A DNA stretch of 37,509 nucleotides from positions 1 through 37,509 of the forward strand of contig JAJRQA010000070.1 in assembly GCA_024280475.1 (NCBI GenBank). Direction: 5' to 3'. Positions 1,376 through 20,184 of this stretch are shown here, in pieces (the stretch's first letter is position 1; every line of letters begins with the position of its first letter). The notes beneath the pieces are model-generated. The model did no database searches, had not been told where the DNA came from, and was given only the letters and a program-made list of their open reading frames with translations. The position numbers and the translations under genes were made by a program. The stretch comes from Alphaproteobacteria bacterium. Its GTDB lineage: Bacteria > Pseudomonadota > Alphaproteobacteria > Rhizobiales > JAKIUO01.

Positions 1376-3481
1376 CTACTCTACCCGCACCAGCACACTA
1401 TCGGCGCGGCCCAGCGCATCCAGTACGCCAAGCCGCACAAAACCTTTTTCATTGGGTTTCCAAAAGGTTGTGCGCCGGGCGCGGTTGGCCTTGATAGGGG
1501 CGCCATTGATCATCCAGGTCAGGGGCAGTTTGCCCCCTTCCGCCTTCATGGCCAAAAATTCGAAATGGCCGTTTTGATTGAGGGAAAGTGCCAGCTGTGA
1601 ACCATTGTGCGGGAAGGCAATTTTTACGGGCGGATTAAGAGCGGCGCGTTCCGCAAATTGCGTATCGACACGCTCGAAATGGCGCATGGTGGCGGGGAGG
1701 TCTGCGGACGAATGGGCCATCAAGGTACCACTTGGTGCCGGCGCGAGAGGTGCCAATGGGCGGCCCAGCTGCTCAAAGGCGTTGAACAAGGCGGGCGCTG
1801 CCGCGGTTCTTCCTGTGAGGCCGGGGCTGGCCGTGCCATCGGGGCGCCCGGCCCAGACGATGATGGTGGTTTTGCCATCGAAGCCGGCGGCCCAGGCATC
1901 GCGATAGCCATAAGAAGTGCCGGTTTTATAAGCGATCTGACCTTTGCGGGCATTTTTTGGAGGTGGGGCATTGGCCAGAATATTGCCAACCTGCCACGCG
2001 GCCTGCTCGCTCATCAAGCGCACACCGGTGCCGCGCCTGCTTTGCTGATCAATTGATTTGCGCCAGCTCAGATCAATCATCTCACCGCCGCGCGCCAGTC
2101 CCACATAAGAACGGGCAAGGTCCTGCACTGTTATGCCAAGGCCGCCCAGCACCATCGAGAGGTTTGGTTTGGCACCAATGGGCGTTTTGAGATCAACGCC
2201 GATCTGGCGAAAACGGGCAAACATGCGGGCCGGCCCCACCTTGTCCAGCAGTTTGACCGCAGGAATATTGAGGGATAATTGCAACGCCCTGGCGACGCTT
2301 AACGTGCCGCTCCAGCTGTCATCAAAATTCTTTGGCTTATAGTGGCCAAAGCGGGTGGGCACATCATCAATCAGGGTTTGCGGATGGGCCAGCCCTTCTT
2401 CGAATGCCAGCCCATAGATAAAGGGTTTGAGTGAGGAGCCGGGAGATCGTACCGCCTTGATCATATCGATGGGACCATGAAACCGCTCTTCCAGGAAATT
2501 GGGGGAGCCGACATAGGCACGTATCTCTCCGCTTTTATGATCAATGGCGAGGATGGCCAGCGAATGTTTGTCACCAAGTCTTGCAGCATGGGTCAAGGCC
2601 AGTGACTGCAGGCGTTGCTGCAAGCCCTTGTCGATGGTCAAGCGGTGAATGCTTTTGGCCGGGCAAGATTTATTCTCGCTTTGCGCCAGATGTGGCGCAA
2701 GCTTTGGAAAGCTCAAGCGCTTATCTGGTACAGCTTCCAGCATGGCGCGTTTGGCGGCTGCCAGCGATATGACACCGCCTGCTACAGCACGCATCAAGAC
2801 GCGGTTACGGGCTTTTTGGGCGCGTTTATGGCGCCGGTCAGGGCGGCGCATTTCGGGAGATTGTGGGAGCGCCACCAGTAGCGCGGCTTCAGCCAGCGAC
2901 AGGTGACGAGGTTCGCGGCCAAAATAGGCCAGCGACGCGGCGCGAACCCCTTCCAGATTACCGCCAAAGGGGGCAAGGCGGAGATAAAGCGACAAGATTT
3001 CACGTTTTGAAAATTGACGTTCAAGTTCAAGGGCTCTGATCGTCTGGCGAAATTTGGCAGCCAAGGTGCGCTTGTCGCGAGGCTCCAGCAGGCGCGCCAC
3101 CTGCATGGTGAGGGTGGAGGCGCCAGAGATGATGCGCCCATTGAAGACCAGCTGCTTGAGTGCGCGCAAGCTGGCCAGAAAATCAATTCCTTTATGGCCA
3201 TAAAAGCGTTTGTCTTCATAGTTTAGCAAGAGCTTCAAGTAAGTGGGATCAACTTTTTCGGGTTGAACCGGCAAGCGCCAGCGCTGCGATTTGGTGGTGA
3301 ACGCGCGCAATAGTTCGCCGTGGCGATCCAGCACGATGGTTGAGAGATCGTCGGCCTTGGCAAGAGACAGTGGACCCATTTTCTGAGTGGCGAGCTTGAT
3401 GGTTCCATAAGCTGCGAGCAAGGCGGTAATTATTAGTAGTCCGCCAATTTTACTCGCAAGCTTCAGGGACTTATTTACCAT
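1376..3481 (-). CDS. pbpC: Penicillin-binding protein 1C (bifunctional glycosyltransferase/transpeptidase)
   Basis: This class A penicillin-binding protein polymerises and cross-links peptidoglycan on the outer face of the inner membrane. It has about 701 residues: a short cytoplasmic start, one membrane anchor (residues 12-30), then the glycosyltransferase domain with the EDKRFYGHKGID catalytic motif (Glu89) and the transpeptidase domain with SSLK (nucleophile Ser349), SLN (in SLNIPAVKLL) and KTGT (in KTGTSYGYRDAWAAG). A C-terminal BiPBP_C domain (region NPPVKIAFPHNG to the end) identifies it as the 1C type. The ATG at 3481 is chosen because GGAGGT sits six bases upstream; an earlier in-frame start would add a non-membrane leader read from within the upstream gene. 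It overlaps the alpha-2-macroglobulin gene by 11 bases. In enterobacteria pbpC and yfhM are also adjacent, and the pair is thought to sense or repair envelope damage. Confidence 0.95.
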   Translation of the reverse strand: MVNKSLKLASKIGGLLIITALLAAYGTIKLATQKMGPLSLAKADDLSTIVLDRHGELLRAFTTKSQRWRLPVQPEKVDPTYLKLLLNYEDKRFYGHKGIDFLASLRALKQLVFNGRIISGASTLTMQVARLLEPRDKRTLAAKFRQTIRALELERQFSKREILSLYLRLAPFGGNLEGVRAASLAYFGREPRHLSLAEAALLVALPQSPEMRRPDRRHKRAQKARNRVLMRAVAGGVISLAAAKRAMLEAVPDKRLSFPKLAPHLAQSENKSCPAKSIHRLTIDKGLQQRLQSLALTHAARLGDKHSLAILAIDHKSGEIRAYVGSPNFLEERFHGPIDMIKAVRSPGSSLKPFIYGLAFEEGLAHPQTLIDDVPTRFGHYKPKNFDDSWSGTLSVARALQLSLNIPAVKLLDKVGPARMFARFRQIGVDLKTPIGAKPNLSMVLGGLGITVQDLARSYVGLARGGEMIDLSWRKSIDQQSRRGTGVRLMSEQAAWQVGNILANAPPPKNARKGQIAYKTGTSYGYRDAWAAGFDGKTTIIVWAGRPDGTASPGLTGRTAAAPALFNAFEQLGRPLAPLAPAPSGTLMAHSSADLPATMRHFERVDTQFAERAALNPPVKIAFPHNGSQLALSLNQNGHFEFLAMKAEGGKLPLTWMINGAPIKANRARRTTFWKPNEKGFVRLGVLDALGRADSVLVRVE

Positions 3482-19276: not shown

Positions 19277-19370
19277 TCTTCCCCTTATCTTGTTTCCTCT
19301 TTTTCTTTCATTGTAATCCGATGCGATTACGGGTGTAATCATCATAAAATATGCTGATTCGATCAGCGCA

Positions 19371-19515
19371 GTGCTTCTCGAAAAGTGGGTACCGGTTTTT
19401 GGATAAGAAGCACGGCTAACAGTGCTTCTCGAAAAGTGGGTACCGGTTTTTGGATAAGAAGCACGGCTAACAGTGCTTCCGGAAAAGTGGGTACCGGTTT
19501 TCCGATAAGAAGCAC
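19371..19515. repeat. Three tandem 51-bp palindromic repeats
   Basis: Units start at 19371, 19422 and 19473. Each is 43 bases plus an 8-base spacer (GGCTAACA in the first two gaps). Each unit is itself an imperfect palindrome, with ends GTGCTTC and GAAGCAC and a core containing GTGGGTACCGGTTTT. Units 1 and 2 are identical; unit 3 differs at a few positions (GTGCTTCCGG, TTTTCCGATAAG) that keep the pairing. Similar AAAAGTGGGTACCGGTTTT elements are dispersed intergenic repeats in Rhizobiales. The last unit ends 21 bases before the chpT start. Confidence 0.9.
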
Positions 19516-19536
19516 GGCATAAAAGAGGAGCAGGGC

Positions 19537-20184
19537 ATGGGTGATTTTGCGGAGTTGAGTGATCTTGATCTGGCAGCGCTGGTTGCCAGTAAAATCTGTC
19601 ATGACGCTATTGGCCCGATGACGGCTATTGGTTTTGGGCTGGATGTGCTTGATGAAGATGAGGATGATGAAGAGCAGCGCGAAAGTGCTCTTTCGATGAT
19701 CCGCAATGGCGTCAGCACCATTACTTCCAAGCTACAATTTTCACGGTTGGCTTTTGGAGCCGCTGGATCTTCTGGTTTCGAAATCGATTTACAGGATGCG
19801 CAGGCTGTCGCACGCAATTATGTGGAAAGTGAAAACAAGCACAAGATTGAATGGAACTGCACAATCGCCACCTTGCCGAAAAATCACGTTAAACTGCTGC
19901 TTAATCTGGTGGCCGTCTCTATGGGGACAGTGCCTCGTGGTGGCGTCATTACGATCAATATTGACGGGGACAATGATCGTCCGTCTTTTATGATTAAAAC
20001 AAGCGGCCCAAAAGCGCGCGTCCCGGCCGGGATTGTTGATCTTGTCAATTGCTCCCCCACTGAAGAAGTAGATGCTCGCTCGATCCAGCCTTATTTTGCC
20101 GGCCGCGTTGCGATTGCAACCGGCGCGAACATCACCATTGCCATGGATGGCGAGGATGTTTTACTGAACGCAACCTTCTCTTGA
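19537..20184 (+). CDS. chpT: Histidine phosphotransferase ChpT
   Basis: ChpT passes phosphate from the hybrid kinase CckA to the cell-cycle regulators CtrA and CpdR in alphaproteobacteria. The 215-residue product has a DHp-like start with SKICHDAIGPMTAIGFGLDV, where His22 is the expected phospho-acceptor, followed by a degenerate Bergerat-like domain lacking clear ATP-binding boxes, as in the family. ATG 19537 has GAGGAG upstream at good spacing. The gene sits immediately after the triple repeat and 165 bases before a hybrid cheA. The acidic loop DEDEDDEEQRE between the two helices is notable but not diagnostic. Assignment rests on family pattern, not on alignment. Confidence 0.85.
   Translation: MGDFAELSDLDLAALVASKICHDAIGPMTAIGFGLDVLDEDEDDEEQRESALSMIRNGVSTITSKLQFSRLAFGAAGSSGFEIDLQDAQAVARNYVESENKHKIEWNCTIATLPKNHVKLLLNLVAVSMGTVPRGGVITINIDGDNDRPSFMIKTSGPKARVPAGIVDLVNCSPTEEVDARSIQPYFAGRVAIATGANITIAMDGEDVLLNATFS

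What the first reader, a model, noticed from the sequence alone, without database searches (positions are those of the whole stretch)
19371..19515. Three near-identical 51-bp palindromes directly upstream of chpT
Perfect periodicity, compensating changes in unit 3 and closeness to the chpT start (21 bases) mean the repeats must lie in its promoter or leader. They could form hairpins in the mRNA or serve as a binding array. Tandem expansion of a normally solitary dispersed repeat is unusual.
Basis: partly seen in the sequence, partly recalled or inferred. Interest (0 to 1): 0.5.

Follow-up and report, generated by a model that had tools for sequence, protein, structure and literature searches.

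The report
Mobile-element hairpins repeated before chpT
Three copies in a row of a hairpin that elsewhere forms one end of a small jumping DNA element sit just before the cell-cycle gene chpT; the number of copies differs between related species, which looks more like repeat drift than a dedicated switch.

Summary
In detail: three head-to-tail copies (period 51 bp, 43-bp hairpin each) end 21 bases before chpT. The interpretation needs changing. The unit is hairpin 1 of a widespread alphaproteobacterial mobile repeat resembling the published CIR and Bru-RS elements. Its core AAAAGTGGGNACCGGTTTT is conserved, while the outer arms differ between loci yet stay complementary. In a sister species (G004) the same hairpin opens a dispersed element of about 104 bp with a second inverted repeat. 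At one insertion two relatives show the empty site, fitting TA duplication at a YTAR target. Tandem copies are usual in this genome (6 of 8 loci). At chpT the genus has 3, 2, 1, at least 1 and 0 units. The 91 bp upstream keep their exact length in two relatives and are about as conserved as the ORF, while the array varies and decays. So the array probably lies in the transcribed leader. A dedicated regulatory role is not supported: arms show no excess of G-U over A-C, and co-direction with the downstream gene is seen in this genus but not in other array-bearing genomes. No transcript data were available. New variant of a known kind.

The parts
19369..19521 (+). tandem array, three units of 51 bp (units 1 and 2 identical, unit 3 88%)
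19371..19413 (+). hairpin unit 1; core 19381-19399
   Evidence: R1 43.5 bits; fold -18.2 kcal/mol on + strand, -9.6 on - strand
19422..19464 (+). hairpin unit 2; core 19432-19450
   Evidence: R1 43.5 bits; identical to unit 1
19473..19515 (+). hairpin unit 3; core 19483-19501; 94% identical over about 52 bp to the dispersed element of G004
   Evidence: R1 49.5 bits; fold -22.0 on +, -16.3 on -; match
19277..19367 (+). conserved 91-bp block before the array, probable promoter region (inferred)
   Evidence: same length, no gaps in G002 (83 of 91 identical) and G001 (79 of 91); no sigma-70 consensus promoter found on + strand
19353..19367 (.). small palindrome GCTGATTCGATCAGC holding a GANTC site (19356-19360), kept in G001 and G002; GATTC also in G003
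19525..19530 (+). Shine-Dalgarno-like GAGGAG
   Evidence: sequence
19537..20184 (+). chpT, 215 aa
17720..19276 (+). upstream ORF, 518 aa in the ORF list, no Pfam family found

Best explanation
The array is a local head-to-tail triplication of the first hairpin of an alphaproteobacterial miniature mobile repeat (CIR-like, with TA ends). An ancestral copy landed, or was left behind, between the chpT promoter and its ribosome-binding site; replication slippage or unequal exchange then changed the copy number and partly homogenised the units, while single units decay. Shown here: the unit's membership in a repeat family, its structure, the element's mobility in a sister species, the copy-number variation and decay at chpT. 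Inferred: that the array is transcribed as part of the chpT leader, that slippage made it, and that its effect on chpT is passive and mild (folding of the leader, possibly altered mRNA stability) rather than a dedicated switch.
For: Same core at 14 places in this genome and in 40 of 121 relatives, with one match of the reversed control pattern in all. Arms complementary but locus-specific: 67 different 7-nt left arms among 138 distinct units; 108 of 138 units have at least 6 of 7 pairs, against 6.6% of swapped pairs. In G004 the hairpin opens a dispersed element with a second inverted repeat; 16 of 17 exact right ends lie beside a hairpin hit. Empty site of the L112 insertion in G002 and G001, with target TTAA and a TA at both ends of the insert; a second insertion (L116) is about 100-124 bases shorter in G000, G001 and G002, not resolved to the base. 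chpT unit 3 is 94% identical to that element over about 52 bp. Copy number at chpT: 3, 2 (one decayed), 1 (decayed), at least 1 (contig edge), 0. None of the 25 chpT loci fetched from outside the genus has a unit. Upstream 91-bp block: 83 of 91 and 79 of 91 identical without gaps, ORF 575 of 645 and 564 of 645. Insolitispirillum L311 shows hairpin 1 duplicated in front of a second palindrome.
Against: In this genus, tandem arrays all point at the downstream gene where one could be assigned (G000 6 of 6, G002 5 of 5, G004 5 of 5 with 3 of 8 unassigned; orthologous loci, so not independent), which drift alone does not predict. The + strand folds better than the - strand for both unit types tested. 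Units 1 and 2 are identical, so some process keeps or renews them. The chpT array itself lacks a TA/CTAG left end and a second hairpin, so its derivation from a full element is inferred. A YTAR lies just left of the hairpin in only 33 of 87 named copies.
Confidence: 0.65

Rival explanations
1. A leader RNA array that regulates chpT and other genes: each hairpin, with its GNA triloop, A-rich bulge and conserved core, is a binding site for an RNA-binding protein or RNase, and copy number sets the response.
For: Conserved core with variable but complementary arms; arrays in this genus co-directional with the downstream gene, among them chpT, cysE, gyrA and rplU; better folding of the + strand.
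Against: G-T and A-C mispairs are equally common in the arms (29 against 30 in 122 units), whereas selection on one RNA strand should favour G-U. Outside the genus no orientation preference: downstream gene co-directional for 5 of 11 arrays in G020 and 5 of 10 assignable arrays in six other genomes. Units decay in G001 and G002 and are absent in G003 at chpT. When the whole leader is folded, the best structure pairs unit 1 with unit 2 instead of making three separate hairpins.
Confidence: 0.2
2. A DNA-level binding array (transcription factor, nucleoid protein or chromosome-organising factor) that uses the palindrome as double-stranded DNA.
For: Arms complementary without strand preference in mispairs; head-to-tail arrays with periods of 51-60 bp in 7 of 14 genomes listed.
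Against: The period tracks hairpin plus short spacer; the core is not a symmetric DNA site (G.G opposition, off-centre bulge); the arms, about a third of the site, have no fixed sequence.
Confidence: 0.1
3. A REP/BIME repeat moved by a Y1 (RAYT) transposase.
For: Short extragenic palindromes, often in clusters; Y1 transposase genes exist in G000 (2), G001 (25) and G002 (1).
Against: No Y1_Tnp match in G004, G020, G063 or G106, the genomes richest in copies among those I searched with R1. The units lack the GTAG or CGTC foot that marks the two REP super-families. No head-to-head or tail-to-tail neighbours within 200 bp among 164 listed copies. The empty site fits a TA duplication, not a Y1-type insertion.
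Confidence: 0.04

Closest known systems
CIR elements (CcrM-associated intergenic repeats; Chen and Shapiro 2003, seen only through PMC2229807)
   Same: About 110 bp, two inverted-repeat arms joined by a linker, GANTC at a terminal loop, TA at the ends: met by many copies in G106 (second inverted repeat 17 of 27 hits, GANTC in its loop 13 of 27).
   Different: The chpT array is hairpin 1 alone, repeated; it has no second arm. In G004 the second arm carries no GANTC (0 of 39 hits with it in a loop). A TA duplication was listed as unknown for CIR in that review; an empty site is shown here for a related element.
Bru-RS1/RS2 of Brucella (Halling and Bricker 1994, not held; described in PMC2266754, PMC3163539, PMC2267715)
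   Same: 103-105 bp palindromic intergenic repeat; Brucella pituitosa L303 carries a two-hairpin element with our core.
   Different: No reference sequence of Bru-RS was available, so identity was not tested.
RIME / A, B, C palindromes of Rhizobium (Osteras 1995, not held; mentioned in PMC2573895)
   Same: Intergenic palindromic mosaic repeats of rhizobia, dozens per genome; composite insertions seen here (L115).
   Different: Sequence not compared; the link is from description and memory.
GTAG/CGTC REP elements with RAYT transposases (PMC3733652)
   Same: Short extragenic palindromes, abundant and patchy, CGTC type mostly in Alphaproteobacteria.
   Different: No GTAG/CGTC foot, strictly head-to-tail, no Y1 transposase in four copy-rich genomes.

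Membership tests
CIR element | about 110 bp with two inverted-repeat arms and a linker | tested here: not met
   Array at chpT has only hairpin 1 repeated. Met by dispersed relatives in G106 (17 of 27) and in G004 (16 of 39 by script, one of which is a neighbouring hairpin 1).
CIR element | GANTC at a terminal loop of one arm | tested here: not met
   No GANTC inside the three units; one lies upstream in a separate small palindrome at 19353-19367. In relatives: 13 of 27 in G106, 2 of 22 in G063, 0 of 39 in G004.
CIR element | TA at the termini | tested here: inconclusive
   Absent at the chpT array; present at G004 insertions, with TA at both ends of the L112 insert; YTAR near the left end in 33 of 87 named copies.
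MITE (non-autonomous DNA element) | dispersed near-identical copies, no coding capacity | tested here: met
   For the family, not the chpT array: G004 has 37 R1 hits with unrelated left flanks.
MITE (non-autonomous DNA element) | target-site duplication shown by an empty site | tested here: met
   L112 in G004 against G002 and G001: TTAA target, TA on both sides of the insert; one site at base level, the C/T before TA has diverged.
MITE (non-autonomous DNA element) | terminal inverted repeats shared with an autonomous element | tested here: inconclusive
   G004 ends GAGTGCTTCCG and GGGTCTTTCCG are imperfectly alike (by eye); one right end without hairpin 1 (C96) was read and showed no obvious longer element; no transposase was tied to the ends.
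REP with RAYT | GTAG or CGTC foot | tested here: not met
   Unit feet are GTGC/GCAC; definition from PMC3733652.
REP with RAYT | Y1 transposase in the genome | tested here: not met
   Absent in G003, G004, G020, G063, G106; present in G000, G001, G002.
Known Rfam RNA family | match at gathering score | tested here: not met
   Only two tRNAs in the window.

The most novel reading that the evidence does not exclude
In this genus a mobile-element hairpin has been domesticated as a copy-number-tuned leader module: tandem arrays in front of chpT, gyrA, rplU, cysE and others form a regulon read by one RNA- or DNA-binding factor, linking cell-cycle phosphorelay, topology, translation and cysteine synthesis.
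Probability: 0.12. Interest if true: 0.7.

Novelty: new variant of a known kind. Interest (0 to 1): 0.36.

Why it matters
It ties a puzzling repeat at an essential cell-cycle gene to a class-wide mobile repeat whose way of moving was still called unclear in a 2007 review (PMC2229807), and supplies an empty site with a TA duplication for it. It also shows that isolated hairpins of such elements recur as head-to-tail arrays in several families, at orthologous places with species-specific copy number, which makes a clean natural series (0, 1, 2, 3 units) for asking whether such leaders do anything.

Tried and rejected
Chance: rejected. RNA-strand selection from wobble pairs: I first expected it from the better + strand fold, but mispairs are 29 G-T against 30 A-C, so I dropped it. 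A general leader function: suggested by this genus, not by other genomes. REP/RAYT: rejected. Rfam RNA: none. Sigma-70 promoter scan: nothing on the + strand, one site on the - strand, no more than shuffles give. Search for named chpT relatives found none. The array has no match in the plasmid collection, while a full element from G106 (L197) matches 142 plasmid records, 120 of them Rhizobium, none over 80% of its length. Six literal motif strings occur in no held paper. The MAFFT alignment A2 misplaced the right arms of 7-bp units, so the model R1 was built from nine ungapped units only. One search left two of 38 units (L035, L043) with poor lower helices, and L029 and L031 with unusual ones; they were kept where fetched. 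Gene calls come from a small ORF scorer of my own, with uncertain start codons. Regions in G020 were chosen partly because they held arrays, and those of G106 and G063 from the top of a score-sorted, capped list, so their tandem shares are not random samples.

Full report
Observation. The window holds one tandem array, 19369-19518 with period 51, made of three copies at 19369, 19420 and 19471. Each contains a 43-bp hairpin. The last hairpin ends 21 bases before the ATG of an ORF that meets the NCBIfam cut-off for ChpT. Units 1 and 2 are identical; unit 3 keeps the stem through one double change and two wobble-to-Watson-Crick changes.

Family. The core AAAAGTGGGNACCGGTTTT occurs exactly 14 times in the window's genome and in 40 of 121 relatives, while the reversed control pattern matched once. 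In a class-wide sample 17 of 289 genomes have a match at 1e-6 under stricter filters.

Structure. A lower helix of 7-8 bp, a 3' bulge usually of 3-5 nt (often AYAA or TCC), an upper helix of 3 bp plus AAAA/UUUU, a G.G opposition, a U.G pair, two G-C pairs and a GNA triloop. The arms have no common sequence but pair with their own partner: 6.17 of 7 pairs on average against 3.65 for swapped partners; 108 of 138 distinct units reach 6, against 6.6% of swaps. In 87 named copies 72 reach 6. The + strand folds better than the - strand in the two unit types tested, -18.2 against -9.6 and -22.0 against -16.3 kcal/mol, because of fixed G-U pairs. Yet across the arms G-T and A-C mispairs are equal, 29 and 30 in 122 units, so I see no sign of selection on one RNA strand. 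The whole leader folds better than shuffles (z -4.92), but its best structure pairs units 1 and 2 with each other.

Mobility. In the congener G004 the same hairpin, GTGCTTCC...GAAGCAC, opens a dispersed element of about 104 bp between its terminal TAs, with a second inverted repeat ending CGGAAAGACCCTA. That end occurs 17 times; 16 lie beside a hairpin hit, one of them interrupted by another inserted repeat. The insertion in L112 is missing from G002 and G001, whose sequence there reads TTTAAAG and ATTAAAG; in G004 the insert has TA on both sides. This fits a TA duplication at YTAR, the target reported for IS711 (PMC2266754 and PMC3163539, passages read). A second insertion, L116, is absent from G000, G001 and G002 by length. 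A fixed, older full-length copy lies at orthologous places in G000 (C238) and G002 (C84). Unit 3 of the chpT array is 94% identical to the G004 element over about 52 bp. No transposase was identified; Y1 transposases are missing from G004.

chpT in the genus. The upstream region aligns across congeners. G000 has three units; G002 two, the first decayed; G001 one, decayed; G004 at least one, at the start of a contig; G003 none. None of the 25 chpT loci fetched from outside the genus shows a unit. The 91 bases between the upstream stop codon and the end of the GATTC palindrome have exactly the same length in G000, G001 and G002 and are 83 of 91 and 79 of 91 identical, against 575 of 645 and 564 of 645 for the ORF. 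The likeliest reading is a conserved promoter region followed by a length-variable leader. A consensus scan found no sigma-70 promoter on the + strand, and no transcript data were available, so this is inference.

Other arrays. In this genome 6 of 8 loci are tandem. Arrays recur at orthologous places with differing copy number, judged from shared flanks, for instance before cysE (3, 2, 1 in G000, G002, G004) and a SUKH-family gene (2, 2, 2, 1 in G000, G002, G004, G001). Genes downstream include chpT, cysE, a solute-binding protein, a SUKH protein, rplU (G002, G004) and gyrA (G001, G002, G004). In this genus every array with an assignable downstream gene points towards it: 6 of 6, 5 of 5, and 5 of 5 with 3 unassigned; these overlap by orthology. 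Elsewhere there is no preference: 5 of 11 in G020 and 5 of 10 assignable in six further genomes. Among the listed exact copies of 14 genomes, 54 of 164 are tandem, with periods of 51-60, in 7 of 14 genomes, and no neighbour within 200 bp is on the opposite strand (lists capped). Insolitispirillum L311 has hairpin 1 twice before a second palindrome, a plausible step in array formation.

Comparison with known systems. The review PMC2229807 (section 7 and passages read) describes CIR elements as about 110 bp with two inverted-repeat arms, a linker, GANTC in a terminal loop and TA termini, with mobility unresolved. G106 copies meet this often (second inverted repeat in 17 of 27, GANTC in its loop in 13 of 27), G063 less (5 and 2 of 22), and G004 copies have the second arm without GANTC. 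The chpT array itself fails the two-arm and GANTC tests, so I call it a derivative of a CIR-like element, not a CIR. REP elements of the GTAG and CGTC type (PMC3733652, passages and one section) and Br-REP1/2 (PMC5082802, passages) differ in sequence and foot. My literature searches showed no description of tandem hairpin-1 arrays in what I read; subscription journals are mostly not held.

Judgement. Most likely this is a mobile-repeat relic, locally multiplied in the chpT leader, with at most a mild effect. I put 0.65 on this, 0.2 on a real RNA regulator and 0.1 on a DNA site.

Noticed in passing
L198-L217 (G063), L158-L176 (G020), L244-L249 (G073): Hairpin 1 often starts 0-2 nt after the stop codon of a gene read in the same direction: about 15 of 22 places in G063, 12 of 24 in G020 and 5 of 9 in G073 by my gene calls. 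In G106 there is no such direction preference (11 same, 14 opposite of 25 singles). The orientation bias is unexplained.
   Followed up: partly
L115 around 2700-3045; also flanks in L118 and L120: A second type of palindromic repeat (starting AGAGCAGTTTGCGTTCAC, about 190 bp) sits inside or beside the G004 element at CTAG sites, giving composite mosaics.
   Followed up: no
L142, L155, L111 (gyrA) and L134, L104 (rplU): Arrays before gyrA and rplU share the GGCATAAA 3' flank with the chpT array.
   Followed up: partly
L105, L107, L047 (G004); L234, L237 (G017): Several arrays coincide with contig ends, so copy numbers in draft assemblies may be underestimates.
   Followed up: no
window 19353-19367: A small palindrome with a GANTC (CcrM) site just upstream of the array, kept in G001 and G002; GATTC also in G003. 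It may mark a methylation-sensitive chpT promoter.
   Followed up: partly
L311 (Insolitispirillum peregrinum): Hairpin 1 duplicated head to tail in front of a second palindrome, outside the order of the window's genome.
   Followed up: no
L230 around 2019 (G004 C96): A right end of the G004 element without hairpin 1 beside it.
   Followed up: partly
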